A stretch of DNA of 64,000 nt from Legionella qingyii (lineage in GTDB: Bacteria > Pseudomonadota > Gammaproteobacteria > Legionellales > Legionellaceae), in contig NZ_QHJG01000011.1 in NCBI RefSeq assembly GCF_003184185.1, forward strand, positions 58,047 to 122,046, given 5' to 3'. Below, one piece after another: positions 1 to 64,000 of this stretch (positions are counted from its first letter, which is position 1; each line of letters starts with the position of its first letter). Under the pieces are notes generated by a model that did not search any database, was not told the DNA's origin, and worked only from the letters and a program-made list of their open reading frames with translations. The position numbers were made by a program, and so were the translations under genes.

Positions 1-381
1 CGGTTTTGGTTAATTATGTAGACCCCGTTATCGTCCTCATTTAAGTACCAACAAGGTTGGTCATAGATTCACTATGGTTCAATTTCACTACAGCAAAGGT
101 CATAACTTTACCATTCTTGGAAGTTAAACCTTCGGGGTCAAGGTAACGCGCAGATCAAGACATAAGTTTCTTTGCGGACTACCTCGTTACAACTCTAGGT
201 TTCTTTGTAACAATAGTCAGTAACAAACATTTTGATTACGAACTGGCGGTTACAAGGTAGGTCATGAACCCGTTCCTTGTCATTGCAATGGACCCCATGT
301 TTGACCTGGGTACCATGGACGTTTATTACATGACGACGGATTTCGATTTTAACGATTTCATCAAAAGAAATTTGAATTGTA
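1..381. other. Mirror-read (R): major outer membrane protein, N-terminal part
   Basis: R-read, starting at 381 and running off the window at position 1, so 127 codons are present. The protein begins MLSLKKTTLAILALGSS, a typical signal peptide, followed by a mature start with paired cysteines (GPVCTPGNVTVPC) and aromatic-rich beta-strand sequence such as WNIGGQALVLQ. This matches the Legionella major outer membrane protein/porin family known for cysteine-linked trimers. A purine-rich GGAG ribosome-binding site precedes the start and a good promoter lies upstream. The C-terminal beta-barrel is missing because of the window edge. Family assignment is from memory of Legionella MOMP-like proteins and is fairly secure. 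Confidence 0.85.
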
Positions 382-781
382 CGAATACAGAGGCGTATTT
401 AATAATAACAAAGGATAAAGTAACTATTGAGAGATGATCCTCAACAGTAATCGTACGGAAGCAGCGAAGTCCAGCTACGTACGTTGTCACACTCATAATC
501 GTCACCTCATCTTATTCAGTTCTTCTAAATGATTTTTTTTAATTATAAAAAGTTCATATATACGAAAAAAATGCGTAACCTACAAAAAAAACTCGTCGTA
601 CCGACAAGAAACCAAAATGGATAATTTTTTTTACACCGGAGACGCGAAAGAATTTTTTACGTTCTTGTCTCATGGCTCCTACTGATTATATCTCGTAGGT
701 ATTTTTGAACGTTGGAAAAAATTTTAAATTACTAGAACGTTAAATTAAATAAATAAACTGAATTAATGTTAGTTCGCTTGA
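382..781. other. Mirror-read: intergenic region with outer membrane protein promoter
   Basis: About 400 bases with no gene between the end of motY and the porin start. In R-reading a promoter is visible: TTGACT at 521-516 and TAATAC at 499-494, separated by 16 bases. It sits about 110 bases before the porin start, leaving a long leader. The rest is very AT-rich with several A- and T-runs. I see no further structure that I can name. Confidence 0.55.
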
Positions 782-1633
782 GATAAAAAAATAATCGCAT
801 TAGTGGTGAGAAGCCAAGCGACGTGCTGGACGTAGCCATAGTAAAGACCGATGGCCCATGTCAAGTGGGTGGGTTCAGTGTACGTCGTAAAAAAATCCAT
901 GTGGTTCAAAATCATTTATAAAAACGTGGTAAGCGCGGGATAAAAGTCTATGACGCAACAATATTGGGAAAGCGGGTGAGCGTAGTCGTATCGGTTACTA
1001 AGAATAAAGTAAATAAACTCGTAGACGGAGATGTATCACACGTTATGCTGCATTAACAAGGAATAGACGTAGTGAGTTGAGCGATAATAGAAGAAATATT
1101 ACCTTCTGTGAAAGAGCATAGACGACTATTAGCTTGCCATTGTTTAAAGGTTATGTAAGAACTATCGCCCTTATTCCGAAAACTTTAGGTTGCCCACTAT
1201 TTCGTTGGCAACATAATTTGGGACAAAGTCTAGCTATCGACTTTAAACCAAGCATCGGAACACTATCCTTGCACTCATTGAAATTTGAACGTAGCGCGGA
1301 ATCTATCTATGGTTTGAGTGGGCCGAATTGGTAATCGAGAGGACGTTTTTGTCTTCCAGCTAGACCGAAGGTTAACCCGCTAAAATACTACTAAAATCGT
1401 ACATTTATGACGACCTGAAGTAGGGTGCAGGCATTTTGTTTTACCCCTCCAACACGGCGTATAACAAGTTTTATACGCTACGGTATTAATCCCTATCATT
1501 CACGGTTAGGTGTCGCTTAGCCTAATGCCGACTGAGCGGTAGGGAAACGTGGATTTCCTAAACGTTTTACTTGAACGCAGTAACATACACGTCATAAATA
1601 ACATTCGTGGCACGAGTTGCGTTATGTACGGTA
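782..1633. other. motY: Mirror-read (R): MotY-like flagellar T-ring/OmpA-type protein
   Basis: R-read from 1633, 283 residues. An N-terminal signal-like segment is followed by a MotY-type domain. The C-terminal half is an OmpA/MotB peptidoglycan-binding domain: ELSDADKEQLRRIA, a mid-domain GYADASG, then GRAANRRVV near the end. In gammaproteobacteria MotY anchors sodium-driven stators around the basal body. I chose the ATG at 1633 because AAAGGA lies eight bases upstream; an in-frame ATG at 1663 has a poorer site. It diverges from pyrC with a 99-base gap. No flagellar genes lie nearby in this window, which is usual for motY. Confidence 0.85.
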
Positions 1634-1732
1634 TTTAACAGGAAACACTAGGTGTTTACGGTAGAAAATGAGTAAGAGCGATGAACAAAGTACAATAGGA
1701 ATTAATAGCCGTTCTTGCGTCCTTAGAAATGA

Positions 1733-2770: not shown

Positions 2771-2780
2771 ACATAAAATA

Positions 2781-14086: not shown

Positions 14087-15456
14087 AGAAAACGGTTTCG
14101 TGATAACCTTATTGGTATCCGTTTTATTTAGTGGTTAGGTTATCGGTAGGTTTAGTGTTTCGCTTTTTCCCAGTGGTCTCCATTTACTTATTAATTTATT
14201 TTTGTTGACTCGTAGGGATTTTATCCCTGTTTTCCGTAAGGTCCCCAAGACTTGCCGGCTACGTAACAACCTACAAATATTACATTTATTTCATGGGGAC
14301 GTGTTTGTTATTTTTTACGTTTATCTCATGGCTGCAAGTGATCAAGCCGGTTTTGTACCTAACCACGTTTCCGTCGTTCACTACGGTAATTTTGTGGCGT
14401 ATCGTTTTATTGCGCATACCCCCATACTCATATAACTAACCAAACGCTTTTTTAGAAGCCATTATTCGGTAGCGCACTGTATCGATTGTATTGTGCACAA
14501 TTCGGTATCTTATTTTGATTGTAATGCCATCAGTTAGGCCGATAACGTGGTTGCGACTATTTTGACCGGTGCCAAAATATTGGATTTTGGTTATTTCGTA
14601 CCGACTAGCCTCTACGTTGTAACTCACACGACATCACACGCTATGGGCAATTATTGGGACTTTGTTATTATATATTTTGGCATGTTTATTTATTACTCGG
14701 CTAATAAGGATATCCATTCAGGGCAACACCTAACTAGCGGAGAAGTCGGCGACATCTTTGACGCAGTTTCGGTTATATTCGTTTTTTATAATTACTACGG
14801 GGGAATTAATGAGGCAGGGTAGGTTTTCCATTTTTCCCACTGGTTAACCCGCCTATTTGGAGGGAACTTCGTTAGTGTTATTTTTCTTTTTATTGTTATT
14901 CGAACTAGTAGTGGTATTATAATAACTGAGCCCTTGAACTAAACTGGGGGGTTTAATTATTACGCCAATTTTAACAGTATTACTGTGTACGATTATTTAA
15001 TTTTTGAGGTGGGAGGCAACCCGGTACGTTCTCTTGAAACCCCTCTAACTAAAAATTTTAGTACTCTTTTAGTAACCGTATCGGCGAGGTAGGGTGTCTT
15101 TGACGTCTTTGTCTTTACCGTATAAGGTTATCGTTTAGGGTTGGTTGTTAGGTACGTTAATTGAGAGGTTTTGGACGTATTCGTATTGGTATTCGTGACG
15201 GTGTAGGTGGTTATCTACGTCGGTCAAGTCGTATTCTATTTCGTCGCTTCTGCGTTCGATGAGGTCGGTTATGTATTCTTTTTTAGTGACGTCCCGGGCG
15301 TAGATTACGTCGCTGTTGGGGACAGTTTTATTTTTATGGACGTGGATATTACCGCGGTTACGGGTTTTTCCAGTCTAGTTTCCGTCATTCTGTAAATTGT
15401 TCTACCCTAAGAGGGAGTTTACTACGTAACTAGAGAAAAAATGCTTTGTTCAGGTA
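14083..15456. other. Mirror-read (R): APC-family amino acid/cation transporter
   Basis: R-read from 15456, 457 residues. It has a cationic amino-acid transporter-type start (LTAFDLTFLG then GAIIGAGIFILTG) followed by about twelve hydrophobic segments, including SYAELAASIGGCGSAYGYA and ASLIFFAYIGFDA. This is an inner-membrane amino acid or polyamine permease; the substrate cannot be read from sequence. It converges on the PiT gene with overlapping stops and is divergent from pagP. Confidence 0.9.
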
Positions 15457-25468: not shown

Positions 25469-25730
25469 CTTATGCGAGGTACAATCGATTGCTTTTTGAA
25501 ATTAAAGGAAGACGATTATATCGTATCTAGTTTTAGGTACTAAGCTAGAACCATTTAATCAAGAAGAGTTTTTAATGAAGAGCGTGTTGTAGGAATTAAA
25601 ATAGGAAGCATCGTAGAGTTCAGTAATACGGGGCAAAAACTTGTTTTTTATGGGACATGATACGAATATTTTATTTGTCGCGTTAATTTTTATTAATGCG
25701 AACCGGTTTTTGTTGGGCCTCCGGGTTCAA

Positions 25731-26822: not shown

Positions 26823-26840
26823 CAGTATTCCGTTTTCCAG

Positions 26841-26877: not shown

Positions 26878-26882
26878 AAAAT

Positions 26883-28143: not shown

Positions 28144-28320
28144 TCGTAGTAACGGACCCGAAACCGAGCACAGCAACCATTATCCTCGTCTTTCCCAATT
28201 CAATACGGACAAAATTCGTTAGAATTATCGGATAATAAGTTCCGTCTATAGGAACTAAAAACTGTGGGGTGGTTTGGATAATGATGGAAGTCAAGTACTA
28301 AATTCTTGTACGTGTCAAAC

Positions 28321-30324: not shown

Positions 30325-30463
30325 TTAAGGAGGATGTTAAGAAAATCAGGAAAACGAAAATTATGAATATTTATTCAACCAAGGTTAAATTTTTTTGATT
30401 TTTTACTTCTATTCTTTTTCTTTATTCCGAAATTACTTTTTCCTCAAAGTTTCGGTAGAAAAT

Positions 30464-33400: not shown

Positions 33401-36400
33401 AAAATCACGTAGTTCATGAAAACAAAAATGAAAGGAATTATTCGACAACTTACAAAGAGGAAGTAGATTCCATCGGGATTAACCCTCGCATAACTATTTT
33501 ATAGGCTAACAAAAAAGGTTAGGTCTAACTGCGGACACACAACAACCCTATGGTTAATGCTTCAGCGAAACTGGTCTCATCGCGCTCTCGTTATGAACTT
33601 TTCGTCAGTTATTTTTGTATTTATTTCACCATACAACCGCTACCAAGTAGACAAAATTAACTAAACGATGAAGAGCTCCTTAATCTATAAATTGGAATAG
33701 TTGTCTCACGGGGGAATTACTCAGAGATCTGGATAGAAACCCATTTTCATTAAGTCTCCCTCGTAATAAATTGAGTAAGAAGGTTATGAGTTAATCGAAG
33801 CTTATCGATGCTAATATCAATTGCAAAACAACAACCCTTATGAGTATTATAACATAGCCATTAAATCCCTCTTGTTTAAAACGTAACAAGTACGGACGTA
33901 ACATTTTCCATCAATTGAGAAGTCTTTTATTACTTTCACTGGTGGGCAGATGGTTTTATACTACTTGTGTTTAATTATTAAATATCCACAATAGCAAGTT
34001 TTATATCTCTGTTGGGGAATAATTACCCGGGCAGAGGTCCAATTTCTCGAAAAGTCAGAGAACGACATAACTAAGAAAATTATGTAGTAACGAAAGACAA
34101 ACTAGTAAAAGTCTATTTAATATTTACCCATAAAATTACGAGAGCGAAAAAAATTACGCAACGTACTCTTATGGTAGTGTACTAAGTTTCTTCCAAGATT
34201 TTTGACGTACAGAAAATTGTTGAAGTAATTATCGTATATAATTGCAAAGTTGTACGTTAAGGGGAAATTATAGTTTATAGTACATATCTACTATATACCC
34301 TCTAACGCTTACCTCAAATGAGTATTTTATGTACGAACTGACACGCCGCCAATTACCTTTAAATAGTAGGCTTGAGAGACTCAAGTCTAACGTAAGGTAA
34401 ACTAAGTGAAGTGTAAATAAAAATACCAATAGTTATATTGACCGATTGAGAGATTCGCAATACAATCACTTCTTTGCTACATTTAGTTACAGTTACGGGG
34501 TAAATAGGAAATAAGCTAAATGATGAACATAAGGTAGATAACTTAGTTATGGTCAAGCATGTTAAACTAATAGTTAAGGTTGAACTTATAAATCATGTAG
34601 TCATTTATTCAGCGTGTGGAGAAAAAGACAAGAGCAATTCAATTATAAAACTAATTATAGAAGCCAAAGAGGATAAAAGGTTCGTATATTCATTAAATTA
34701 AGTAACAAGTAGTCGAATAAGAAGTAAACGAAAGCAGAATGAAAAGGCGATCATCAGAAAAGTTATCAAGAACCGCCATTATTTATTTGTCTTACCCCAC
34801 ATTAAAGTACAAAACGTCAGTGTCGGTTATGGTGTAGAAACGTTTACGTGAGTTTTCTCGATTGAACTAAACAGTACAAGAATAGGTCGAGTGTATCTTA
34901 TGTATTGAAAAGAAATAATAGCTATAAATGACTTTTGCTGTGTGTCAATTGATATAAACATCATAACGCTCAAACTTAATGACATATAAGTTTTAGAACT
35001 CCTATTATTAAAAGAGGTAAATTATACTAATTTAGAAATTTAGCAGGTGTGTGTTTGTTAAGTAAGAGTATTTATTTGGGATTTAGAGGCCAAAAATCTT
35101 TAAAACATCGCCTGAAGAGAAGTAATTACCTTAATAATTTTTATCATAGCCAACGAAGTGATAACAATATCATAGGGGGACGTTGTCTTAAAGGTGAATG
35201 GGTATAAAGTGGCTGAAGTAATCTAACTGTCTATGAAACACATGCAAGTAACTGATACTGTTGTAAGTAAACTCCTTGTGGACTTGATTGTTCTGCACAT
35301 GACAGACCTCGCAGTCAGTTTTGGTGACTCAAAAAGCGGTCACTAAAACATAGTTCGCTATATTAAAAAAGACAAACATCTTAGCCGAAACGACTTTGGT
35401 ATTGACAACGAAGACGATTGGGTATTGTACCTTTTTACCAAGGACGTGCATTTGGTGTACGGAATATACAAAATATTTTAACAAGATTGCATACTCCTAA
35501 ATAACCGAGACGGGGTAATCGATAGTGAAGATACGCCGAATTTAATTAAAACCTAACTAGATTTAGAGATCGCCGAAATTACGTTTCAAGTTTTCGTTTT
35601 AAACCTCGAGGACAACATCATGTAGGTATGAGACTGTATATGGAATTGGTTAAATTACCAGCACTTTATTTCAGGTACCAGCTGTAGTTACAACTCCCAT
35701 ATAAGCGTATATTTCCGAGTTCTTATGGACGTTAATTAGGGTATAGCACCATCCCTCCGTTGGTTCTTTTGTAAACCGAAGGGAGCGCTACTAGATTTCG
35801 TAATGCTTAGTGAAGTTTCAATAGATTGTTTAACCGTACCGACTCGTAATGGGGAAAACCTAGTGGACATCTAGGGCTCCATATAACGTTTTTACGATAT
35901 AAAAGACAAAAACATTCTCCAACATAGCGAACAAGCTATAATTAAAAAAAAGAAAGAAGCGACCGTTAATTAAATTAAGCGACAGCTAACTAATCGCACT
36001 CATTAACTAGCCATGACAGTAATTACGGGCTTATAGAAAAATTAAAAAATCCATTTTTAAACAATTGATTGTTGGGAAAAAAATTATCACATACTCAGAA
36101 GTATAGTGAGTGGTGTTCCCAACCACATCTTAGAACATGTTATACTTATTTGGCAAGGCAGTAACGTGACAAGTGTCCTCCCTTTTGGCCTTGTTGTTAG
36201 CGCGGACTAAAATCTGTCCTTATTTTCGATTATTACATAAGGTTAGGTCCAGAGCGGCGATTTTACTGAGATAGCGGTCCTAATTGTATAACCGATTGTA
36301 TTTGTCGTTTAGCTAAGTGAAGTCGAAGATTGAGACGTTTCCAGTCTCTGACATAGCTTGCTAGTCTAAGCTACTTAGCCATTCGATTACGTACCCCTAA

Positions 36401-36466
36401 AAAAACACATAACTACGATTATTCTAGACGCTATAATATTTGAAAATTAACATCTATTAGTAAGTG
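30464..36466. other. Mirror-read (R): fatty-acyl-AMP ligase/NRPS lipopeptide synthetase
   Basis: R-read from a GTG at 36466 (GGAG upstream), one uninterrupted 2000-residue protein. Domains in order: fatty-acyl-AMP ligase (about 1-590; QYTSGSTGDPKG near 195, SWLPPYHDMGL near 235); acyl carrier (about 610-690; GIDSIDG); condensation (about 705-1140; HHILVDGW near 855); adenylation (about 1158-1640; YTSGSTGIPKG near 1330); thiolation (LGGHS near 1720); and C-terminal thioesterase (GWSLGG near 1843). All key motifs look intact. It should activate a free fatty acid, join it to one amino acid and release an acyl-amino acid. The amino acid was not predicted. Confidence 0.92.
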
Positions 36467-36506
36467 GCAGCTAAGAGGTTAACTAAATTGAATATAGTGA
36501 AGTAAT

Positions 36507-36962
36507 AATAAGAAAAAATTAAACAAGAAAACAACCGTTTGATTGAAGCAACTGGTTAGGCTTTTCTCTATTTATTTTGACATTATTTATTAGTTAAACG
36601 GTAAAATTTCCGGATACAGAGCGGCCCTTCCCTTTACGTACTACCGCTAATACGGTTGGAAGTGGTACCCGCTCTTGCCTCTTAAATATCCCAGCTACTA
36701 TACGTCAGTAGGTTTTTTTACCTCCCTAAAGTTTTCGATATGGGGACTTTTATCAATCTTGTTCGAACGAATTCAACAATCGAAACGTCATTTCACAACG
36801 TTATTTGCCACAATGATCATATGTATACGATAATTAAAAAGACCAATAACACTTAAAAAATATGTTGAGATGTAGACTAAAAAGGTAATGATGCGAGACT
36901 AATTTTGGCAATGTTGGTTTTTTGTGATAACAATCATATTCAGGATTAACTTGTTAAAAGTA
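36507..36962. other. Mirror-read (R): fatty-acid desaturase remnant with internal deletion
   Basis: R-read from 36962, 151 residues in one open frame. The first part has two hydrophobic helices ending in WMTAYHRPYKF, like the region of the first histidine box of acyl-CoA desaturases. It then jumps straight to HGEGWHNRHHAFP, the third histidine box, and the family's C-terminus. The middle with the HxxHH box (about 150 residues in a normal enzyme) is absent. A catalytic desaturase is therefore unlikely; this looks like an in-frame deletion remnant. It ends 41 bases before the lipopeptide synthetase. Confidence 0.75.
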
Positions 36963-37359
36963 CGATTTACTCACAAAAAAATAGAAGTGCTGAAATATCT
37001 ACAGATACCTCACGTATTTTTTCTCCCGTGTATAGGTTGAGTGACCGTTACTCGCAACAACTCATTAAAAAGGTAGTCGTGCTAGTTACTGAGTCACAAA
37101 AGGTCTGTGCATGTTCGTTGTTACATTAATGGACCTACCTAAACTTAAATTTAGGACTAACCAAGTGAGCTTCTCTTATGGTTTCTACTAAGAGATATCG
37201 CCACGTAAGTAACGTACTTATTTGAACTCAAAAAAATTATCCGCGCTAGGTTTTACAAGAACAAGCTGTTATCAGAATGGAAGACTGTACACAGAGATTT
37301 GGGACCCAACGCGCCATACATATCTGGACTCTCTTGCCATGTGGGTCCGATAATCGTTA
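36963..37359. other. Mirror-read: 397-base region without a recognised gene
   Basis: Between hflX and the desaturase remnant. It holds a 31-codon open frame in R-reading (37289-37194) starting ATG TCA GAA GGT, with no recognised similarity, and otherwise stop-rich AT sequence. It may contain decayed 5' sequence of the desaturase gene, which I cannot show. Confidence 0.4.
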
Positions 37360-46022: not shown

Positions 46023-47921
46023 TACTTGTAGTCACGTGGTAGACTTCTTTTAAATATATTGTAGTTGTTGACCCCACTCCCTATGAAGTCATAATTACGG
46101 CTTCCCTTATAACGTTACTCATTCCGTGGTCCTTTTGGACCACAGCTCAACGTCCGTTAACAATTACGACGCTCATCCCGACCTAACGTAAATGGCGACG
46201 ATTAAGCGACGAGACTATAGAATGTACTGGCACACGTAGCGTAAATACTTCGTAAAAGAGTCCGGTATCTTCTCTTGCTTATATGTCCCGTGATGTTTGA
46301 CCAAATAGGATAATTTCATTTGGTTCTCGTTTCGCAACAAGCGCTTAACAACTTTAGTGGTTTGGTGAGATATCCTGACCTTCGTCCGAGTTTCGGGCTT
46401 GAGTACCGCCAGTAACCGTACGACCCGTTAGTTGTTTTGTCGTGGTATCAAACATTGCCCATATTCCTGTCGATAATATAAGCATGGCGCAATTAGCGGG
46501 TTGTTTACCCTGTATTTCAGAAATAACAATAACTTTTTTAGAGACTCAACCTATAATAAAATTTTCTTAGACGAGCGGACTTTTATTTTGGTAGTGAACC
46601 ACAAGCGTAAGCAAATTAATGATTTTCGCGTCCTTTTACCCTTGTATGGCCGCCCCAATTTAGGTTTAAACCGGAATGACGTTTCGTTCAGGAGCTCAAT
46701 CACTTAGTTAATTTTCGAGTACTGTACGAACTAACGGACGTCAACTACGTAACAGTAAACCCAAGCGTTTATCGGTTATAAGTACTGTAAGCGGTGACGT
46801 ACGTTCTTCAGAGCGCAATGATACAGCTCAATGCGGTTGAGTTACGTGGTTATCTATGATAACTACACCCACCACCTGAATCGCACCTAATACTTCCCTG
46901 GGTAAGCTTAGTCCCAACAAGGTACTTGATGTCGAACGCGCTTATACGGTGGGTATAAGAGGAGCGGTAAGTTATAAATACAGTCCTTCGTTTACAAGGT
47001 CTTGGTTTGTAATAAAGTCTTAGTCCATCTCGGAATTGTCGGGTAGTACGGCAAAATTAAAGACTATAATCGCTATATCTTTATTACTCATTCAGAGGGA
47101 GAGAAGGCCTTTAATGATTACTTCTGAGCGTACACTAAGCGCTATAAATACTATGGATAGTAAGTTAATGACGTTCGAGTGGGTAACTTTAGATATTGAT
47201 ACGTCTTGTAAGCAACTTACTTCGGGTAAGGAACAAATTCGTACCCCAATAATCGAATGTTCTTTTTCGATTTCATCTCCGAAAAATATGATTATATACG
47301 GACCTTGAATTTTGCGCCGAGTTACATCTCTTAGGATGTCTTCTTCGAAATAACCGTTTTTAGTTACTTCTGTACCGGCAATTCCAAAAAACGTTATATA
47401 GCAAAAAGGTTAGCTAAGGCCTACGAACCCGATAGCCTGTTTAGAAAGGTTAACGGGGGTAAAGTGTTGACTGTCTTGGTGGGCAGTACGTGTCACACAA
47501 TGTTCTAAATTGGACACTGAGCCTACCGTGGTAATTTCTTATAGAACCGTCAAGAACACACTTGAGTTGTAATTACAATGGGGGGATACTATCGTTGTTA
47601 GGAATGAGAGACCCAAAAAAGGACCAACCACGTATGGTCCTTTATAACCCATTAAACGTATTAAATAAACCCCTATGATTGAGTGACCTACAGTTTGAGA
47701 AACTACTACCTGTCAAACTCGAGTTACTAAACCAAATACCACTGTGGCATTGGTTACAGAACTTAGAACGAGTAAAACTATGTTTTTTTGAGCAAGTTAG
47801 GATACTTTTCGTCGATTAAGTTCGTCTCGATGGATTTCTTTGTTGCGAAAATATAAATTTACTTAATTCTTCGTAAAAAAGAGTTAATTGGATAAATCTG
47901 CTTTTGTAAGCCTCTTCTATT
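46023..47921. other. speA: Mirror-read (C): biosynthetic arginine decarboxylase
   Basis: C-read from 46023, 632 residues, matching E. coli SpeA (about 630-660). It starts with YNINNWGEGYFSINAEGN and ends with [23 protein letters not shown] plus the family's C-terminal helices. The PLP enzyme makes agmatine from arginine. It is 21 bases after aguB; the aguA start follows its stop by one base. Confidence 0.95.
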
Positions 47922-50138: not shown

Positions 50139-50438
50139 TACGTGGGGTTTCTCTACAACTTAAATCTAAGTGTTTCTGCTTTCTAATATGTACGCACGAA
50201 TACTAATGAGTTTGTTTTGTTAATACATAAAATGACTAAAAATATATAAAAAACCTATTATTACGCCAATCTGTACGTAATAAGAAAATAGATACTCGAG
50301 AATGCGATTGCAATTACTCAACGTACAAAAAACGTTGTTTTAGCTACAATTGAGTTACTTAAAAAAGTTTACTCTGACTGAGAATTAGTCTTCTGGCCTA
50401 GTTCTCAGTCTTACACGAGCCGTTTTAGCTGGATTAGA
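50139..50438. other. Mirror-read: 300-base intergenic region
   Basis: Between the S53 protease stop and the kinase start. R-read, an imperfect hairpin with arms around CAAGAGTCAGAATG and ATTAAGAGTCAGTCTC lies close to the protease stop. The remainder is AT-rich with possible promoter elements near the kinase, none strong enough to assign. Confidence 0.4.
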
Positions 50439-51626: not shown

Positions 51627-51830
51627 ACATAAAGGAATATAGCTACATTAATTTAGGAAATAGAGGTAGTATGCATGGTTACGATAATGAAATTTAATCC
51701 TTGTTGGCCTTATTAACCGAATGAACGTTTCCCTTGTGAAGTATGAACGTTTCTCAAGGACCCAAGATCGAGTGCGGAAGTGGGTCCGATACAACTAATC
51801 AAAAGATTAACTTATAAGTGTGCGTTGTGA

Positions 51831-54248
51831 AATATGCAGATATAAAAGTCGAAGATTACGCAATGAAAGCTATTTGAGTGCAGACCCAAGTTGTAACAGA
51901 GGGTAGTTACAGCACTTTTAGCGTAGACGTCGTTGACGTAGGAGTTACGATTGAACGTCGTATGCCGCATGTCGCCCTAGGTATCAACAGAGGGTGTCGA
52001 CTAGACCTAAGTAAAGAGGGTCTGGAAATATCGCAACTTATCGGACTGGAGAAAACCGAAGAAGGTATTCGGTCAAATTCCGAACAAGTTTCGAAAGATG
52101 GTAGTTGAGGAACAGTGGGGCAAATTGTATGCGAGGAAGGAGATGATTTGAACGATTAAACCTTGGATCTAATCGATTAAGAAATATCAGAAATCTCAAC
52201 TTTTTAAGCTGTAAGTATCCCTACATTAATAGGTAAGGTACGACCCATTGATACTAAGCACCTTATTTAACCAAACATAGAAGGTCTCGTACACAGAGCT
52301 GGACTATGACGAGGCAGAATGATGGATCAACAACGTTTGAGTTTACGTTGACAAATGTGGTTAAACGATAAAAAAGAACGACCAATTTTAGAAGTAACAC
52401 GTTGTACCCGTTTATACGATGGGCAAAATCCTATAGACAGCCTATAGAAGAAAATATTGCAAACTATTAAAAAAGTCGGGCGGCTATAACAACATGGTTT
52501 AGAAGATTACGCCATCGTCGTTAACCTCCTCGCAGAAAACGACCCATCTTACGACGAGGTAGATTTCGTGAAACACAATTTATAAGTTTATTACGAAGTA
52601 GTAGAAAATGTATAACGAGAACAAAAGGCGCGAAGTGAAATATATCGCCCCCGACTCGTTACATCTACATCGGTGCGAGATCGTTAAGACCTCAGACAGA
52701 TATCTTTTTCCAATCATTATTCCAAGACTACACGCTCGGTAGCTGCAGCCGCAGCCAGTACTATTATTATGCTACTATTGCCTGAAATAGCCCTAGTATA
52801 AGTAGCCCAGGATATGGTGTAGGGTTCCGACACTAGTCACATCGGTGAAGAACGCTACTTTCGTAGAATAGTTTTGCACGAAAAAGCTGTAAATTATAGA
52901 AAGGAAACTCGCCATTTTAGCGAACCTTGAAAGATAGGGCGGGAACAAAGCGGCTTGGCGGGCGTCTTAGAGGGAGATGGTCTATTTCGAGACTATTCCG
53001 TCCCAGAAAAAGAACTGTTAGTCGGTCAAAAGGCCCGTTGGGTCGCTATAGGTTACGTGGAAACGCTGCTCAGTAAAGCGCTCGTGCAGCGCGTCGAAGA
53101 GAACGTGCACGTCGTAGATATTAAAACCGTTGTTAACGAAAACGTGTCCGACCTAAAAGATTCTCCTTTAGTAACTTAAAAAGCCGTTGTGAGCTAAGTT
53201 GTTGACTAAAATGAAGACTTCTATGTTCGAATAGGAAACAAACTCTGCTTTTAAACCCTAGCCCTTGAAATTGCCTTTCTTGGCGACAATTAGGGAGTGC
53301 TCGTAGTAGCGGACAACCGCTATGAAACCGGAAAAACCGTATTGGAAGTGAAAGCTATATTAATAAATTTCAAGACCAATTACGTCGGGACTTAGGTCGG
53401 TACACTCATGGTGGTAGTGCGACACCTTATAACAAACATTTCGTTATTTCCCAAAGAACTATTCTTAGTAAGGTGACGTATCTCTCAAGTTGTTGTTATA
53501 ATAGAAAAAGTCGCGAGTATCTTTTGTGACATCCATATTACTGCAAAAATAAAAATAATTCCACGAGCTGTTTGCGGAAATAGGGTGGGAGTATTACCTT
53601 ACATAGAACAGAAACTGACGCGAGTAGTTTGTTTACCTACGTCTGCGGTCTTAAATTCATCCTATTAAGAGAATCAGAAAAACGATTTTATAGCATCACT
53701 TTAAGTTATAATCTCTTACAAAGTCGTGAGCCAAATTTGGTTTAAACTCAAGGTCAGCAACAACGTAGCGGACAAAGACGGTACCCGCGAAGACCTTGCG
53801 GTAACGCCATTACAACAAGCACTTAAAATGGTACAGCTGCGTGACAGTTTACGTTAAGAAGACTATTCCGTAATTGATGACTTTGTGGTTGCGGTACGTT
53901 TGGTGGACTATGAAATATCCTCAATAGTAGTTTGAATGGAGGACGCACTTCATGACAGTACTAGTGAAGACGTCGTCTCGCGGGAAGAAGAAATACTTAT
54001 AGTTGTCCCTATGGTGCAGGTAGTAGAAATTGTCTTTAACTGAGTAGCCTTACTTATCATTGTTTTTAGAGAAACGTCATAGGACGGTCACGAAGTAGAT
54101 ATCTCAATAGTTGTTGAAGTTTTTGGTACACCACGTCTGGACATGGTAGTAGGCATAGTGGCTATATGTAGGGCCCAGAAAAAGAATGACGTAGATTTGG
54201 GAAATCCTGAAATTATAATAAACTTAGCATTGACCGTAGTTGCGAGTA
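51831..54248. other. gyrB: Mirror-read (R): DNA gyrase subunit B
   Basis: R-read from 54248 (GAGG nine bases upstream), 805 residues, equal to E. coli GyrB (804). The N-terminus has the ATPase signature KVLKGLDAVRKRPGMYIGD then GTGLHHMVFEVVDN. The C-terminus ends RREFIESNALEAENIDV. It supplies the ATPase of gyrase. It is the fourth gene of the classic dnaA-dnaN-recF-gyrB order; only ends and selected segments were translated. Confidence 0.96.
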
Positions 54249-54439
54249 ATCCACCAGGAGAATGGGATAACCACCACAAGATTTATGGGATATTATCGTA
54301 TAAAACGCGGTGCAAATATACAGTAGGTCCTTGAAATGTATGTTAGCTATTGCGGGAGGAATTTCGGTGAGTTATTACCTTATATCTGATAAGGGAGAAA
54401 ATAAAAGTAACTACCATTTATCCAAACCTCTGATGCTAA

Positions 54440-54455
54440 ACAAAGTGCACTTTGT
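54440..54455. repeat. 16-base palindrome; mirror-read parS site
   Basis: Literal text is ACAAAGTGCACTTTGT, a perfect palindrome. Its mirror is TGTTTCACGTGAAACA, exactly the consensus parS bound by ParB (Spo0J), and it lies between recF and gyrB next to the origin, as expected for chromosome segregation. Confidence 0.93.
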
Positions 54456-55523
54456 AATAAAGACGACATTGTGCGGAAGTGACTAAACTATTTAATTTAC
54501 AAGAACCCAGCTATAATGACTTTACTCGAAAAGACCTACTCAACATCTTCACTAATGCATAACAGGGCGAGCAACTCGTTCTATGAGGTATTCAAAGTAA
54601 ACTACACAAAGTAGCTCAAGTCGTCCATTTAGCAGTTAATTTACGTTCGTAAGGACAACATTTTCTAAGCGAACTCGATTCGCGTTTCGTTAATTTTAAT
54701 AAAAAACAACGGGTGCCCTATTTTGAACAAAGCGAAATAAAACTAATTGAAGATAATTTTATAGTCGAACTACTCGCGGTTTAACACATATTCAGAAAAC
54801 TAATAGTCTTCGTTTTAAGAGTCGATTATAAACAAGGTCAAGAAAAGGTCTCAAAAAAAACAGGGTTGGAAATATTATCGATTCGAATGTTAGCTCTACT
54901 GAGTTAAGAAAATCACGTCGCTGTTTGCGTGCAAGGGTAACGCGTTTTATGAGAAGTGCTTCGTGTACTTCAACCATCCGTTTAACTGAATCGACAAATA
55001 GGGTACCTTGTTTTACGAAATTTCCCCGTACAACAAAATTTTCGCGTAACGCGACGAAATCATGAGAAAATATAAGGAAGGTATTTCCTTCTATCAATAC
55101 AAAGTGCACTTTGTTAGGGGTCAGGTTATTTGATGCTGCTTGTCTTCCTGGACGTAGCTATTAAACTTTTTCCAGCCTTATTTTCTAGACTGTCCCATTG
55201 CGCATTCGGTTAACTGACCAACACCTCGTTTTAACTAATAAGTTAAATTAGACCCACCCAAGTCTTATTCTAAAAACTTATGATTAGCAAAGAACAACAA
55301 CACGAGCTCGTTTATGCCAATTTCTACCCATTAGTATTCTTTATTAACCGCTATAAAGTGCCCTTGCTTTTCTTACAGGTGTCGAATTATTTATTTCAGG
55401 AAGTTCCTGTCTTCAAAACGGTGACGGTAAACCTGGTATATATTTTAATTTAGACCCTGAATTCGGTTCAACACAGCTACTTTATAAAGCATTCAATACT
55501 TAAGAATTAAGTCTTTCCTAGTA
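54456..55523. other. recF: Mirror-read (R): DNA repair protein RecF
   Basis: R-read from 55523, 355 residues. The start overlaps the dnaN stop as ATGA. MILSELRIHNLR, Walker A YGPNGSGKTSVLEG, the family LLDWGLFHVKH segment, and near the C-terminus SRGQQKIILIALRLAQ (signature) and LIDDLPAELDE (Walker B). It loads RecA at gaps. A parS site lies inside its coding sequence at the LFHVKH codons. Confidence 0.96.
55099..55114. repeat. Second 16-base palindrome; mirror-read parS inside recF
   Basis: Same perfect palindrome as at 54440-54455, embedded in the recF frame where it encodes the F-H-V-K stretch. Two exact copies 660 bases apart beside the origin make chance very unlikely. Confidence 0.92.
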
Positions 55524-56623
55524 TAAAAGTATCCGTATTAATATATAACCATTAATAGTAGTAGATATCTGAGTTAATTTTATGATGATAGGCATAAGCT
55601 ATCTCTGTTTGCTTAAACAGGAAGTGGTTTTACACTTTCGTGTAGCTCGTTTATCCATCGTAAGTTCGGTTAGAAATTGAGTAGCGGGACACAAAGTCGC
55701 TAATTTCTAAGTTGCCGAAGAAGAACAAGTAATAACAACCGTTAATTTCAATTGTACGGTCCAACATTTACTTCGTATTGGCGGAAACTGAAAAGTACTC
55801 GGTTTTACTGTTATGCACTATTACTCGCGAATTTTTGTCGCGTTAGTTATTACTAGACGAACAGGACTAAAAATCCTTATCGAAATCATATTCCTCCTTT
55901 TGCGCGAAGTTAGTTAAAACTATTTTTGTATTTAACTGCCCTATGGTTAAATTTTACTCTAAAAGGTCGTCGGTTATTATGGAGAAGTAGAAGTTATGAT
56001 AAATCTTCTGCATTGTTGAGAACTTAAGGGAAAAAACCATAGTTGTCAAAAAAGAGTAACCATAATCTTGTAACTACTGCTGTTTAGCGGTAAGCTACAG
56101 GTAGACATCGTTGTCGTCTTTACTCCAAGCCAAGTTTTAGTTCTTTGTTAGGTAAATCTTTCTGAGCGTGTAGAACAACACGGTATCGTTTTACTCACCT
56201 GACGTTGTCGAAATTATTTTGGTTTGCTCCTTATCAGTTAAGTTGGAGCAACGTAAGTAGAAGCGAATTCCCTATCGGTAGTCGCCCATTGCAACAGTTA
56301 AACTTGCTTGATGCAGGAACAAATTATCAATTATCTCGTAATAGTTGTTAGTGAAACCCTAACCCCAGTAGTAGATTTCTTGCTTATTATAGTTATTTAA
56401 AAAAACGTCCCTGTCATTATGAAGGTCTGACAAGCGGTCTTAATGTCCCATGAACTCGTCGTTAGAGTTAAAGGTTTAGGCATCGGCATTATAAATTGCT
56501 TAATAGACTATTAAATTCTATTTTTAAGCTGTTTTATCGATTTGAAACGAAAAATAGTTGTCGTGGACGTTGACATTCATCGCCTCTTTCATTTAGGAGA
56601 AAAAATTATCGCTTAAGTTTGTT
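55520..56623. other. dnaN: Mirror-read (R): DNA polymerase III sliding clamp
   Basis: R-read from a TTG at 56623 (GGAG upstream), 367 residues (E. coli 366). It starts FEFAIKKEDLLSPLLTVAGAVDKK and ends with the clamp's QYIIMPMKI, the conserved MPxR/KI tail. The beta clamp tethers polymerase III to DNA. The 209-base gap to dnaA may hold its own promoter. Confidence 0.96.
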
Positions 56624-56832
56624 CTATCTTGAGGTAGAATTGGATTCTTATTGTTATTTTTTTAGCGAAGTAGTGCGAGTACGTAGTAGACCTAATTCTA
56701 TCAGTATTAGCATCGGTCTCATTTCGCTTTGCCTTGTCCCAAACAGAGCCGGACCTACTTATGAAATCAGGACCTAAGGTGGAGTTAGGGGAGTCTTCGG
56801 GTACCAGCCAGACAATTTTAGACAGCTAACTT

Positions 56833-58224
56833 AATTCTTCTGTTTTACGCGTAATTTAAAAATATTAGAAGTCATTTTAGTGACAGTAGGACTTGGTTAA
56901 GGAATTGAAAGGACGTACGTACTTATTGGCAACATACTAGTGCCGGTGGTTTTACTAGGGGTTAAAGCCCATTCGACACTAACCAATTGAGAAACGAATT
57001 TCGGTATCGGTAAACAGACCCAGACCGTTATCTTGCCGACGCCGCGAAACTGTTATTTAGTCGGTGAAACTGGAATATTATGAGTCGATGACAAAAAACT
57101 TATAAAAGTTACCATTGATTAAATAGGACGTTTCGGTCTTCTAGTGCGTTCCGAAGCACTTGTTTGAGTTACCATTAACCAAACGGTCATTTTACTCGTA
57201 ACCGTTATTGAGCGGCATTACGCGGGAGCTCAAGGGACTGTAACCTCGCTTATGCGAAGCGTTATTTTTTACGTTGGAGTATTCCGTTAAGTTATAAGCT
57301 AACAAGGCGGAACGATTAATTTTATCGTTGTGCACAAAGTTCGAGCCCTCCAAGTTGTCGTTGTCAATTAGGGGTTGGTTTAGCCCTAAAGTTTGCGAGA
57401 AGGTATGGAAGTTAAAGAAATCCTATTGCCAGTGAGCACTCTTACTAAACAACGACGGGGAGGTTATTTCGTAATTTTCATACCTTTTTGAGGAGAACTC
57501 TGGACAGAAATGGTCGTTTTTTGACCTATAGTAGTTATTCGTTACGTAAATCCCTTGCTATTTTTGCAAATTTAAGTAATTAACTCAAGCAGACCTATCG
57601 GAAATGGTATAGGCGTTGTTTTGCAAGTCTTACATTTATATCATAGAAGCGTAGTCCTAATAAAAAATTATACCGTAATGGTTATCGTACGTAGTTTACG
57701 CAAAAAGGATTTGGGTGTGGTGGTATTTATTTGTCACCTAATATCCGTAGTGGTCCAGCGAGTCGATGGACGTAACTTCGTCGAGCTCGATCGACCAACC
57801 TTAATGGAAGTTGTTTCGAAAGTTTTTGTTTAAAAAATAAATTCACTGACGAGAATATTAGCTGTCGAAAGAATCCACGGCAGAACTAACGTTGCCATAA
57901 CCGGCCTCGTCTCCGTAAATGAAGTCTACTTTTTCTTGATCTTCTTGGACGTCTCGAGCTTAGTCTGAGTCATGACCTTTGAGACGACGGTTAAAGTTAT
58001 CTTTAACTAAATTAGAGTAGTGGTGTTTTGACAAATTAGTTGAGAAGTTAAGCACGTTTTTTTACGAAGAAATGGGTTAGTTGTTGTTTAGCTAACCCTC
58101 GTTTATTTTATTTTGCAACAAGAAGACATACTCGGACATTTCCTGCGTTGGTCCATAATTTAACAACTCGTCTTATAAGTAGAACGTTATCTGGATTTGT
58201 AAAAACGGTTTGTCTACGACTGTG
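56833..58224. other. dnaA: Mirror-read (R): chromosomal replication initiator DnaA
   Basis: R-read from a GTG at 58224 (GAGGAG upstream), 463 residues. Domain I SASVWQKCLGLLQDE, a Ser-rich linker, AAA+ domain with [22 protein letters not shown] and LLIDDIQFFAGKDR, and C-terminal domain IV with [26 protein letters not shown]. It starts replication at oriC and begins the dnaA-dnaN-recF-gyrB order. DnaA boxes lie just upstream, suggesting autoregulation. Confidence 0.98.
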
Positions 58225-59583
58225 TTGTATTGAGGAGTAATTTCTTCCCACCATTTTTCTTATGTTTTGATTAATAGGTGTCGTTAATTTATACGGTGAC
58301 TTTCATGGGCCTGTCGTTCTATTAATTCGTACTTTAATGATGCATACTTTAACTCTTTATCTTAAAGAAGCCATGTGATTCCACGACGACGTCCGTTTAA
58401 TATGAGTCGGAACCCTTATTTCTTTTCAATAGGTGTTTTTTTCACACCTATAAAAGTCTTCATTCTCTCTTAATAAAACGTTCTTTAAATTTAACTATAT
58501 AAACTTCTCTCGATACGATTCATCTGCATAGTGAAACTTAAAGGTACGTTAAAAGGAATAAGAGTAAATTTTTTTCTATTTTTTTGTTAACTCAAACGGG
58601 AATTATATTAACAAAGTTTATTTCTAGTCATGTCTCCACAACTAACCTTGCTTAGCGAGGTAGAAACAAGAGTGAAACATATGGATTGCTAAATTTCTGT
58701 ATTCTATTACATCGTGAAACTAACGTGCGGTATTGGCAAATTTATGTAGTAATTTTGTAAGTCGGAAAACAAGTATTTCTTTTATTGGTGCTTATGAGAT
58801 AGATAAGTAATTACAGCGCGTTATCGAAAACAACTGAGAAGACATTAACGAAAACTTGATAACCGTGCAATTGAAATAAAGGATTACACTGTTTATTTTT
58901 TATCTTGATGGTTATCGATTTTTATATCGCTATCTTTTCTATGTGCTCAATTTCTTTTTTTTCGCTGTTTTGATGGTTGGTATCGCTTATGCTATGGTTT
59001 ATTATCGGTACGCTGGGATCTAGGTCTAGGTTATGGTAAATATCGCCTACAATTTTTATTCTACTAATAAGGATTTATCGACTTGAGTAATAAACTGCAG
59101 TAACTACAAATCAACGTAACGTTTTTTCTTATTATTATTTTTTTAGTTATTCAATTCATAATTTGTTGTAGGTCGCTTCTTGTCGCTATTTTGTATTATT
59201 TTTTTCTATTTTTTATTTAGTCCAACCTAGTTCAATTGATACTTATTTATGCTAGCTTATTGCCCATATTCGACTATTATTTAGTAACTTATTTAGTTTA
59301 GTATTTTTATGTATGTTTATCTAGTGTTCGAATTTTTCTCCAATGTTTGTTTCAAAGTATAGTTAATTCAATAACAAAAATTATTAATAAATTGTAAATA
59401 GTTGTTGTCTATTTTTGGATTATTGTTATTTTTTAAATTTTTTATATTTTATTACATCAATAATTGTCCGGGTTTTTTGTTTCTTTTTTCTCTCCTGTGT
59501 TTTTTATTAGTTAATAGTTTTAACTGTCATCTTTTTTTCAAGAGATAATAACGGTCGGAGTATTTAAATAATTGTCCAAGTAG
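58225..59583. other. Mirror-read: putative origin of replication/dnaA-rpmH intergenic region
   Basis: A gene-free, very AT-rich stretch of about 1.36 kb between divergent dnaA and rpmH. In R-reading it contains two perfect DnaA boxes as TGTGGATAA (58281-58273 and 58436-58428), a third with one mismatch (58452-58444), and long A/T runs at 59090-59520 that could be the unwinding element. Its position fits a chromosomal origin or the dnaA regulatory region. No convincing open frame was found in it. Confidence 0.7.
59522..59550. other. Mirror-read (C): promoter of rpmH
   Basis: C-read, a consensus -35 TTGACA (59522-59527), 17-base spacer and -10 TATTAT (59545-59550), about 30 bases before the rpmH start. 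It is the strongest sigma-70-like promoter noticed in the window, fitting a ribosomal protein gene. Confidence 0.85.
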
Positions 59584-59718: not shown

Positions 59719-60063
59719 CACAAACGAAAATTTTTTTGTGTCGCTAATGATTGTTTTATACTAATATTAGTACACAAACTTGTTCGTCTTTTTTATCATT
59801 GTAGGCTCAAATAGCAAGAGAAATCTCTTTTATTAAATCCAATACGTGCTGAACCCGACCGCAATAGATTCTTTTACTATCGTTTTCGAGTACTAGCTTT
59901 AGCATAATTTGCCGACAATTCTCTTTCGAAAGCTGTTTTTCTTAATGGACGTCAGCTACACCAAAAAAATCGTTCTGTTCCGCATCGTTTTGTTTGTTTA
60001 CGTTAATATTTACGATCTTACTCGTTTTGTACCTTTTTTAATTAGAGTACAATGCTTTTTATC
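59719..60063. other. rnpA: Mirror-read (C): ribonuclease P protein component
   Basis: C-read from a GTG directly after the rpmH stop, 114 residues. FAFKKTQRLLTKYDYN, the LGLALSKKM stretch and the RNR-like box DRNRIKRLLRESFR define the family. It supports tRNA 5' processing by RNase P RNA. It overlaps yidD by 16 bases. Confidence 0.96.
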
Positions 60064-60278
60064 AAACAAAGGGATAGTTTAATATATTTATAAACTAATC
60101 GGGGAACAATTTCGGTTCAACGGCTATGATGGGTTCAACAAGTGTTATACGACTTTCGCGATAGGATGTGACACCGTATTGGTTTCCAAATACCTACCGA
60201 AATTTTTCTCATGACGCAACGGTAGGAACCAGTGCACCACCGATACTAGGACATGAGGGGTTGTTGCTCTTAGTAACT
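60048..60278. other. yidD: Mirror-read (C): membrane insertion efficiency factor YidD
   Basis: C-read from 60048, inside the 3' end of rnpA; 76 residues. It has [42 protein letters not shown], the invariant cysteine-rich YidD core. It assists YidC-dependent membrane insertion. The stop overlaps the yidC start codon by one base (TGATG). Confidence 0.96.
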
Positions 60279-61951
60279 ACCTATATGCTGCATAACAAAA
60301 TATATACCGCGAACGCGATCAATCAAATAGTGAAACCTTACGGACCGTTGATCTAATAGGAGGAGTCGGTCGCGGTTGTCTTTTCCACTCGCCGGTTCTC
60401 GTCTCACCTGTTGGAAACGAAGGCGTTCAATGTGGTAGGTTATGCAGGTGGAGTTGCGGGTAGTTGGGACAACGCCTTGTTTGATTTTTGTCATTACATG
60501 GCGATTAGGTCCAATTTTGCCTACAAAATCTACACCGATAACTAGGCGTTGTTCCACTACAACAAAGGCCCGTCGAGGAACTAATAGGCGTTTCACATCT
60601 ACTTTTCTTATTTGGTAAAGAAGAAAATGTTTTAGTCCGTTTACTCGCAATACAACGTTTGTCGTCGGAAAAACAACGAAGTCCTGTCTTGCAGGTTCGA
60701 GAACTAAAGTTAAAATGCTGTCGTGTTGTCTTAATGCATTACCGCGGGCTGGTCGTCGTTAATTGCCATTGAGAATCACCTTGTTTATCACTTCCTGAGT
60801 TACATTTTTTTCTCAAATAAAAATGATTTCCGTCGATAGAATAGCTACATTTAATATTTTAACAATTGTTCCCGTCGTTACTTACCTGACCTATAAACTT
60901 ATGGGTCAATAATGCGTCGAGTGGGTTTCTTCTATTCAGTTCGCATAAAGTACAACCGAGTATATGACCACGAAGAATAAGTCTTGGGCCTTTTGTGGCG
61001 ATAGTTTTTCATTCGAAATCGCTATACTTATTTCGTTTAGACCTACACCTATCATTTCCGCCAACCTAACGATACGTTGTTGTAATGAAAAATTCGCGGA
61101 CCCAAGGACGTCGTTTACGCTTATTGTTCAAAATATGTGCTCGACGGTTACTACTAATATGATAACCACGACACTCGTTCGGCTAATGGGAATTTGGGCT
61201 TCTCGTTTGTTGACAACCAAGGTTTAACATATAACCAGGTCTTTAATGCTCGCACAATTTTCTCTAACGAGGTAGTGACCTAGAATGACAACTAATACCG
61301 TACAATACCAAAAATAGAAGCAATAATAAAAGCAACTACTTTTGTTAAATATTAAAGTAACCGTTGACCCCAACCAGATAGCATAATCAATGACATAACT
61401 AATTTGACCGTAAAATGGCGAATAGTCGCCGGTCGATATTTAGTTACCGACCATACGCATTTAACGTTGGGTTTAACGTTCGCGATGCACTCGCAATACC
61501 GCTACTATTTCGATTTTAGTCGGTTCGCTGATACCTTAACATGTCCGTCCTTTTCCATTTAGGAAATCCGCCAACAAACGGATATAACTAGGTTTAAGGT
61601 CATAAATAACGAGATATAACCCAAGATAACCTTTCACAACTCGATTCTGTTCGAGGTAAATAGAAAACCTAATTTCTAAACCGGAGTGGACTAGGAATAG
61701 TACATAACGGTTATTAGTACCCCCGATGGTACGACTAAGTTGTTTTTAACTTAGGACGCGGAGGTCTAGGTTACGTTCGTTTTCACTACTACAAAAATGG
61801 CCACAATAAATGACGAAATAAGACCTTAAAGGGTCGGCCAAACCAAGACATAACCTATCACTTATTATGGAACAGGTATAACGTTGTTACCATGTAATGT
61901 GCATTTATAAGTCTACTTTTTGGTCGGTTTTTTGAACAAGGTCGATTTATT
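60278..61951. other. yidC: Mirror-read (C): membrane protein insertase YidC
   Basis: C-read from 60278, 557 residues, normal for gammaproteobacterial YidC. It begins MDIRRIVLYMALALVSLSLW (first membrane helix), followed by a Pro/Gln/Thr-rich linker and the large periplasmic domain, and ends KKLVPAK. It inserts membrane proteins with or without SecYEG. The mnmE start abuts its stop. Confidence 0.96.
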
Positions 61952-63316
61952 TACTGATGTCTTTGATAGCATCGATATCGATGGGGTGGACCTTCTCCAC
62001 CCCATCCTTATTAGGCTAATAGGCCAGGTCTTCGTATGAGATAACGGAAAAGAGAGTTACCATTGTTTAGTAATGGTGGTGCGTACCGATGAAAAACGAG
62101 GAAAATAAGTAAAACGTTGTTACTCGTGCGGGTCGTTGAACTATGAGACTAACTAGTTCCCTATTACTAAATAAAATTTCGCGGAGTGAGAAAATGACCC
62201 CTTCTACAACAACTCTAAGTTCGCGTGCCGAGCGGACAACACGAACTATACGACTGATTTCATACATAAGTAAATCCCCGAGCGAACCGTGCCGGTCCCC
62301 TCAAAAGGCTCGCACGCAAATATTTACTATTTTAACTAAATTGAGTTCGACTTCGATAACGACTAAATTAAGTTCGGTCAAGCGTTTGGCGACGCGCTTA
62401 CCGCAATTTCAGTAATGTCCCACTTAAGAGTTTATTTTATTTATTCAATTTACTTTTCTAATAAATGAACGCAAATATACAACTTCGTCGTTATCTAAAA
62501 GGTCTTCTTCTTTAACTAAAGGAATTACTGCCATTTCAGCGCGTAAACGATGTGCTATAAAATTGACTTAATCTACTTTAGGCAAGGGTTCGGTTAGTTC
62601 CTCAATAAAATGCACTCCCTAACAGACATCACTAACGACCTTCTGGATTACGTCCGTTTAGTTGCAATTAATTAACAAACCGCCCTGCGCTACACCGATA
62701 TCAATGACTCTAACGACCGTGGTGAGCACTATAATACGCGCTTGTATAAAATAACCTACTGTAGGGGGAGGTGTAATAACTATGACGGCCAAATGCACTC
62801 AGACTACTATAACAGCTTTTCCTTCCCTAATTTTCTCGGACCGTTCTTAACTTTTTCCGACTAACACAAAATGACCAGCAACTACATTTACTAGACCTTG
62901 TGGTAGTAATAAATTGATTCCTTTAATCTTGGCGGAACGGTCGCCTTCAAGGCTAATAATGACAGAAGTTATTTTAACTGTGGAATCCAGTGGCACGAGT
63001 GTGTTTGTTAGTACTATAGATAGAAAGACGTTTTAGTCCACTTCCTTAACTACCGAATTTCGTTCATTATTTTGTGCAACATCCGATAGTTGGATTGCTT
63101 CCTTTAAAAGAACGGTCTTCTGCCGTAAACGTCCGTAACCTACTTCGTTTTTTTAATGAAAGCTGTCCGGTCGTTGTTAACCGTCTCGTAGCACGACCTC
63201 TCAATGACCGTCTTCTGAACGCAGACCGTGTAGTTTCAGATACGCTTTATTGTCCGCTCAAATCAAGCCTACTGAATAATCCTGCGTAGAAAAGGTCGAA
63301 AACATAACCGTTTATT
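61952..63316. other. mnmE: Mirror-read (C): tRNA modification GTPase MnmE
   Basis: C-read from 61952, 454 residues, identical in length to E. coli MnmE. N-terminal TTETIVAIATPPGRGGVGIIR, folate-binding domain with FTGEDVVEIQAHGS, G domain VVIAGRPNAGKSTLIN, DTAGLRE and NKID, and the C-terminal FCIGK with the essential cysteine. With MnmG it builds the wobble uridine modification of tRNAs. Last gene of the rpmH cluster. Confidence 0.98.
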
Positions 63317-63532
63317 TAACTAACTATCCGACAAATTAAAACGACCTGTGTTTGGCGGCGTAATAATTCAAAAAATAAGAGTGAAAAAGTGGGGTTTCAC
63401 TAGAAATGTCGATATTTGTGAAAGAAATGACAAAACTTTGTAATACAATTTTTTTGTTTGTCTTTATAGAACAGTTTTGGTAACAGGTTACTATTGCATA
63501 TTCAGAATGACAGATAAAAAACACTCCACCAG

Positions 63533-64000
63533 TACCGAGTAAGTTTTGTATTACGCCTAGAATCATTGCTATTCTTGAGCAAAAAATACGTTGAATTATT
63601 CTTACTCGAATTCTGACATCTCCTATAACTTGCAGCACGACTATTCGAGCCAATAGGAAAATAAAATCTTTTAGTTTTTAGAGAACTTCGACTTAAGTGG
63701 GTTTACAAACGTCACGACGTTTTCGCTTTTTTTCTTCTATTACTTCGAAAAACCTACATGACAATGATAACGCGATGGGACAATCTCTGGAAGGTATTTC
63801 GTATAAGAGTCATGTCATTTCTTCTTCTAATATTTTTTTATTTCGTTGTTTAATTCTTGGCTAACAATTTTTTCCATGTTCTCCTACGGTTTCGTCTCCT
63901 TCTCAAGTAGCTTAGTGACTTTTTGTCAAAAGAATTGTCAAAAGTATTAAACTACTTACGTGGTAATGTAGACAGGGTCTAAGCACTAATACACCGAATA
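63533..64000. other. Mirror-read (C): unknown protein, truncated by window edge
   Basis: C-read from 63533 (GAGGTGG upstream) to the end of the window, 156 residues without a stop. Lys/Glu-rich and helical, possibly coiled coil; no signal peptide and no recognised family. A promoter-like TTGTCA-17-TAACGT lies about 50 bases upstream. Its divergence from housekeeping composition suggests a genus-specific protein. Confidence 0.7.

What the first reader, a model, noticed from the sequence alone, without database searches (positions are those of the whole stretch)
1..64000. The supplied string is the reversal of a natural sequence
Dozens of intact conserved genes (dnaA, gyrB, mnmE, speA, sodB and others) appear only when the text is read backwards, or complemented without reversal. 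Starts, Shine-Dalgarno sites, ATGA overlaps and stops all work in that reading and none in the stated polarity. Any feature called on the literal plus or minus strand would be an artefact.
Basis: seen in the sequence. Interest (0 to 1): 0.97.

Follow-up and report, generated by a model that had tools for sequence, protein, structure and literature searches.

The report
Bacterial DNA text written backwards
This 64,000-letter window is a stretch of Legionella chromosome with its letters in reverse order and not complemented, so its genes appear only when it is read backwards; the reversal is likely a software step or a deliberate control and not biology.

Summary
As given, the window has no open frame above 162 codons (50 Markov-1 strings reach 177); reversed, frames reach 2008 codons and 45 ORFs of 100 aa or more cover 88%. 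In alignments with natural DNA the literal string gives 0 matches; the reversed string gives 450 blastn matches over 80 of 80 loci, 3247 tblastx matches to 21 Legionella loci, and, for one 300-base gyrB piece, 44 of 45 genomes (literal 0 of 45). The reversal has no biological route and is most likely a string operation, accidental or as a control; that step is inferred. In passing: a 9.2-kb block of the natural sequence, absent from the nearest genome at that site, is predicted to make a lipopeptide.

The parts
1..64000 (.). whole window: letter reversal, without complement, of a Legionella chromosome segment. Window position p is natural position 64001-p. Strands are given as '.' because no gene was found on either literal strand.
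61952..63316 (.). mnmE (454 aa), read left to right with letters complemented
   Evidence: Pfam TrmE_N E 6e-40
60275..61951 (.). yidC (558 aa), read left to right complemented; its natural stop and the start of mnmE abut (TAAATG)
   Evidence: Pfam YidC_periplas; junction
59719..60063 (.). rnpA (114 aa), read left to right complemented
   Evidence: Pfam Ribonuclease_P E 3e-27
56833..58266 (.). dnaA (477 aa), read right to left uncomplemented; two TTWTNCACA boxes lie upstream (natural 5565, 5720)
   Evidence: 96% identical to Legionella steigerwaltii DnaA; DnaA_N; boxes
55520..56623 (.). dnaN (367 aa), read right to left
   Evidence: DNA_pol3_beta E 2e-30
54456..55523 (.). recF (355 aa), read right to left; ATGA overlap with dnaN
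   Evidence: SMC_N; overlap
51831..54248 (.). gyrB (805 aa), read right to left
   Evidence: HATPase_c; a 300-base piece matches 44 of 45 genomes of the genus when reversed, 0 of 45 literally
46023..47921 (.). speA-like arginine decarboxylase (632 aa), read left to right complemented
   Evidence: Orn_Arg_deC_N E 5e-4 on the first 140 residues, below the curated cut-off; natural DNA collinear at 82% in L086
4752..5330 (.). sodB (192 aa), read left to right complemented
   Evidence: Sod_Fe_N E 9e-35, Sod_Fe_C; first 60 residues found in 4 of 4 genomes
1..381 (.). start of a Legionella major outer membrane protein-like gene (127 aa, cut by the window's end), read right to left
   Evidence: Legionella_OMP E 4e-24
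28149..37340 (.). 9.2-kb block of the natural sequence that the nearest genome (G020) lacks at this site, between an hflX-like gene and a redoxin gene; its genes too are open only in reverse
   Evidence: gap of the reversed window against G020; also absent at this site in L. steelei
30464..36466 (.). 2000-aa synthetase inside that block, read right to left: AMP-binding (two stretches), carrier (two stretches), condensation, thioesterase
   Evidence: Pfam
28321..30324 (.). 667-aa protein inside that block, read right to left: ThiF domain then a nitroreductase-like part
   Evidence: ThiF E 4e-40; Nitroreductase E 3e-7 for the whole protein, no single stretch passing 0.001 alone
14876..14896 (.). 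21-base mirror palindrome, the longest exact word that the literal string shares with the fetched DNA of G020

Best explanation
The window is a 64-kb Legionella chromosome segment around dnaA and gyrB whose letters were put in reverse order without being complemented, most likely by a string operation in software, by mistake or as a decoy control. Shown: the reversed string aligns to natural DNA along the window and the literal one does not. Following from how strands pair: reversal and complement without reversal are the same molecule read from its two strands, so which was applied cannot be told from the letters. Inferred: the reversal happened when the text was handled and not in a cell, because copying of DNA always pairs antiparallel strands (established knowledge).
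For: Open frames: 162 codons literal against 2008 reversed, 50 Markov-1 controls at most 177. Blastn at E 1e-5 against 80 natural loci (Legionella and other gammaproteobacteria): literal 0 matches, reversed 450 in 80 loci. Against 21 Legionella loci, 14 of them from those 80: blastn 0 against 130, tblastx 0 against 3247. The same 300 gyrB bases: 44 of 45 genomes reversed, 0 of 45 literal. Collinear with G020:C22 93698-150585 from natural base 1 to 63999, 54,533 bases covered, 91% mean identity; literal 0 matches. Strand-symmetric dinucleotide distance to ten natural loci: 0.015-0.047 reversed, 0.179-0.217 literal. Pfam at E<=0.001: 36 of 45 reversed ORFs, 0 of 19 literal.
Against: Nothing found speaks for the literal polarity. 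Weaker points: one literal ORF of 19 has a Pfam match at E 0.003, which I take as chance; the literal string shares a 21-base exact word with G020, above 15 of 15 Markov controls (16-19), but that word is its own mirror image, the self-reversal effect described for reversed decoys (PMC11099658, passages). That the step was software is inferred: no source genome is held, metagenome contigs could not be scanned, and the absence of the literal 30-mer from genome contigs and viral contigs and of a literal 8 kb from plasmids says little, because the natural order was not run there as a control and no identical genome was found in the sets searched.
Confidence: 0.98

Rival explanations
1. The literal string is natural DNA whose genes are unrecognised (foreign code, heavy decay or a random-like region).
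For: None beyond one weak Pfam match among 19 ORFs.
Against: The mirror image is collinear at 91% with a real genome along the window; literal blastn and tblastx give 0 matches.
Confidence: 0.005
2. Only part of the window is reversed (a splice of literal and reversed pieces).
For: None. A 9.2-kb block (window 28149-37340) has no match in G020 and could in principle be of other polarity.
Against: 32 of 32 two-kb tiles are more open reversed; the unmatched block itself holds a 2000-aa and a 667-aa frame with strong Pfam matches when reversed; matches lie from natural base 1 to 63999.
Confidence: 0.01
3. A public record was deposited in reversed order and the window was cut from it unchanged.
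For: Not excluded: the natural genome itself was not found in the sets searched, so its record could not be looked at.
Against: Weak: a literal 30-mer is absent from genome contigs and viral contigs, a literal 8 kb from plasmids, and the literal gyrB piece from 45 genomes of the genus; but the true source may lie outside these sets.
Confidence: 0.05

Closest known systems
Reversed (not complemented) sequences used as decoys in benchmarks of sequence search (Glidden-Handgis and Wheeler 2024, PMC11099658; start of abstract and passages seen)
   Same: A natural genome text reversed without complement; keeps composition, loses genes; the longest exact match to natural DNA is a mirror palindrome, in line with the effect that paper describes.
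   Different: There it is declared and used to count false matches; here it came unlabelled.
dnaA-dnaN-recF-gyrB region of Legionella (L. sp. 515359 L002, L. steigerwaltii L001, L. steelei L003, unnamed G020)
   Same: Gene order and sequence once reversed: 91% DNA identity to G020, DnaA 96% to L. steigerwaltii.
   Different: Order of letters; and a 9.2-kb block that G020 and L. steelei lack at this site.

Membership tests
letter-reversed (not complemented) natural sequence | reversal, and not the literal string or its reverse complement, aligns to natural DNA | tested here: met
   literal 0 matches, both strands searched
letter-reversed (not complemented) natural sequence | alignment runs along the whole string in one order | tested here: met
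   natural 1-63999 in one order along G020:C22 93698-150585; uncovered over 100 bases only 26661-35852 and 53206-53408; G020 has about 0.4 kb and 1.5 kb extra at two joints
letter-reversed (not complemented) natural sequence | dinucleotides XY of the natural genome appear as YX | tested here: met
   CG 1.37 and GC 0.85 literal; 0.85 and 1.37 reversed; 0.86 and 1.35 in L002 (AG and GA are alike and tell nothing)
letter-reversed (not complemented) natural sequence | source record holds the opposite order | not testable with these tools
   no whole genome held for the window
Legionella chromosome | conserved genes nearest to Legionella | tested here: met
   the first 14 DnaA loci listed are all titled Legionella, 88-96% identity; Legionella_OMP
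Legionella chromosome | identity with one named species | tested here: inconclusive
   nearest genome searched is unnamed G020 at 91%, 93% in the gyrB piece; no identical match among 45 genomes

The most novel reading that the evidence does not exclude
Once turned round, the sequence comes from a Legionella species not among the 45 genus genomes searched, and it carries beside hflX a 9.2-kb block for a new lipopeptide: a fatty-acyl-AMP-ligase-like module joined to one amino-acid module and a thioesterase, with a ThiF-nitroreductase partner that would tailor the product.
Probability: 0.5. Interest if true: 0.3.

Novelty: not a real feature. Interest (0 to 1): 0.06.

Why it matters
It matters for quality control and not for biology: a gene, promoter, start or stop called on the literal window is meaningless, and a scan that reports 'no genes in 64 kb' here would be misled. 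Composition, repeats and hairpins still hold. It also shows that a reader with no tools can spot a polarity error from conserved genes alone.

Tried and rejected
Rejected: a natural literal sequence and a partly reversed splice. No own genome is held. tRNA scans find none in either polarity, and Rfam finds nothing in the window or in five natural Legionella loci, so RNA genes cannot tell the polarity here. Terminator-like sites do not tell it either (2 and 2 in my own scan). Reversal and complement without reversal cannot be told apart: they gave identical counts. Literal look-ups in genome contigs, viral contigs and plasmids found nothing but were run without the natural order as a control, so they carry little weight; after holding the report against the calls I raised the odds of a reversed deposit from 0.03 to 0.05 for that reason. 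The species was not reached: named relatives L001-L003 lie at about 72-87% DNA identity in the longer matches, the nearest genome (unnamed G020) at 91%.

Full report
What was claimed.

Open frames. In the literal window the longest stop-free frame in six frames is 162 codons and none reaches 200; in the reversed string the longest is 2008 and the frames of 200 or more sum to 17,531 codons; 50 Markov-1 strings made from the window's own dinucleotides reach at most 177. In each of 32 two-kb tiles the reversed text has the longer frame. In the reversed string 45 ORFs of 100 aa or more remain after dropping those half or more covered by a longer one, and cover 88%; they were chosen mechanically, first ATG/GTG/TTG, so some starts will be wrong.

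Families. 19 literal ORFs of at least 80 aa gave one Pfam match at E<=0.01, DUF5991 at 0.003. Of the reversed ORFs, first 140 residues each or the whole if shorter, 35 of 40 match at E<=0.001 and 32 of 40 reach the curated cut-off; of the remaining 5, one matches weakly below its cut-off. Total 36 of 45 and 32 of 45. No match was seen for nine: the 395-, 180-, 522-, 400-, 123-, 325-, 1476-, 373- and 540-aa ORFs.

Natural relatives. Against these 80 loci, which include other gammaproteobacteria, blastn at E 1e-5 gives 0 matches for the literal window and 450 for the reversed one, in all 80. Against 21 loci (14 of those 80, and 7 fetched, 80 kb of L. steelei among them): blastn 0 and 130; tblastx 0 and 3247. 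A paired test with the same 300 bases of gyrB in the 45 genomes that the tool searched for the genus (120 asked): reversed 44 of 45, literal 0 of 45 (G038 missed in both; the tool warns that an empty answer alone shows nothing, and the reversed query serves as its positive control). The best genome, unnamed G020, was then fetched: reversed window bases 1 to 63999 lie in one order along G020:C22 93698-150585, 54,533 bases covered at a mean identity of 91%; literal 0 matches. The two uncovered stretches over 100 bases are natural 26661-35852 and 53206-53408; G020 has about 0.4 kb extra near natural 5267 and 1.5 kb near 39500.

Composition. Strand-symmetric dinucleotide abundance puts the reversed string at 0.015-0.047 from ten natural Legionella loci and the literal one at 0.179-0.217; CG and GC, AT and TA, AC and CA are exchanged, while AG and GA are alike and tell nothing.

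Signals. SD-like cores stand before 15 of 45 first starts, against a mean of 3.8 and a largest value of 11 in 500 draws of random positions; two ATGA overlaps and one abutting stop-start are present; two DnaA boxes lie between rnpA and dnaA. In the literal string the matching stretch holds one such box, so boxes alone would be weak evidence.

What survives reversal. Perfect 8-bp hairpins number 21 in both polarities and terminator-like sites 2 in both. Inverted and direct repeats and G+C content are unchanged by reversal, as follows from the definition. The longest exact word that the literal string shares with the fetched part of G020 is 21 bases (reversed: 330), more than in 15 of 15 Markov controls (16-19), but it is a mirror palindrome. 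[quoted passage not shown]

How it arose. In a cell this cannot happen to 64 kb: copying keeps strands antiparallel, so inversion gives a reverse complement, never a mirror text (established knowledge). The literal 30-mer at window 61-90 is in neither genome contigs nor viral contigs, and window 50001-58000 has no plasmid match; these three are weak, because the natural order was not run there as a control. I infer a string operation before the window was issued, deliberate or not; this is not shown.

What the natural sequence is. Among others: mnmE, yidC, rnpA, then dnaA, dnaN, recF, gyrB, a uridine-kinase-like gene, agmatine deiminase-like, speA-like and carbon-nitrogen hydrolase genes, an hflX-like GTPase, redoxin, thymidine kinase, pirin, darP, an RlmL-like methyltransferase, pagP-like, coq7-like, class-III aminotransferase, sodB, glutaredoxin, peroxiredoxin, motY-like and a Legionella outer membrane protein gene (Pfam; gene names beyond the Pfam names are mine, from recall). 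One block, natural 26661-35852, is absent at this site from G020 and from L. steelei. It holds a 180-aa ORF whose last 57 residues resemble DNA about 1 kb upstream, on the other strand, of an AMP-ligase-like gene in L. steelei (59%, L101); a 2000-aa synthetase with AMP-binding (two stretches, one starting near residue 21, the other at 1166-1516), condensation (701-1144), carrier (two stretches, the better at 1679-1741; the place of the first was not printed) and thioesterase (1761-1861) domains; and a 667-aa ThiF-nitroreductase protein. The ThiF part has a 58% relative in 1 of 13 genomes (G002); 11 others have matches at 32% or less and one has none. The synthetase's first 140 residues have matches of at most 41% in 13 of 13. 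That the first module is a fatty-acyl-AMP ligase and that the block makes a lipopeptide are inferred from the domain order and recall.

Verdict. The finding is correct and is a property of the text, not of an organism. It is not a biological feature; interest is low except as quality control.

Noticed in passing
window 28149-37340 (natural 26661-35852): 9.2-kb block absent from the nearest genome and from L. steelei at this site: a 2000-aa synthetase with two AMP-binding, two carrier, one condensation and one thioesterase match, beside a 667-aa ThiF-nitroreductase protein; predicted lipopeptide locus.
   Followed up: partly
window 36507-37049: 180-aa ORF (reversed reading) upstream of the synthetase; its last 57 residues resemble DNA about 1 kb upstream of an AMP-ligase-like gene in L. 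steelei (59%). A GEGWHNRHH-type stretch recalls fatty-acid desaturases (recalled; Pfam found nothing in its first 140 residues), so it may be a remnant.
   Followed up: partly
window 38899-43329: 1476-aa ORF (reversed reading) with no Pfam match in its first 140 residues; lies within a 90% stretch of G020, absent at this site in L. steelei. Function unknown.
   Followed up: partly
window 2-414: The natural outer-membrane-protein-like gene at this end matches two neighbouring places in G020, in L088 and in L091, so it is probably one of a tandem pair.
   Followed up: no
window 25701-26822: The 373-aa ORF (reversed reading) matches two nearby stretches of L. steelei at 71% each (L086 10847-11720 and 12514-13323), probably a duplicated gene of unknown function.
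   Followed up: no
window 14876-14896: 21-base mirror palindrome, the longest exact word shared by the literal window and fetched natural DNA of G020: a real case of the palindrome effect in reversed decoys.
   Followed up: yes
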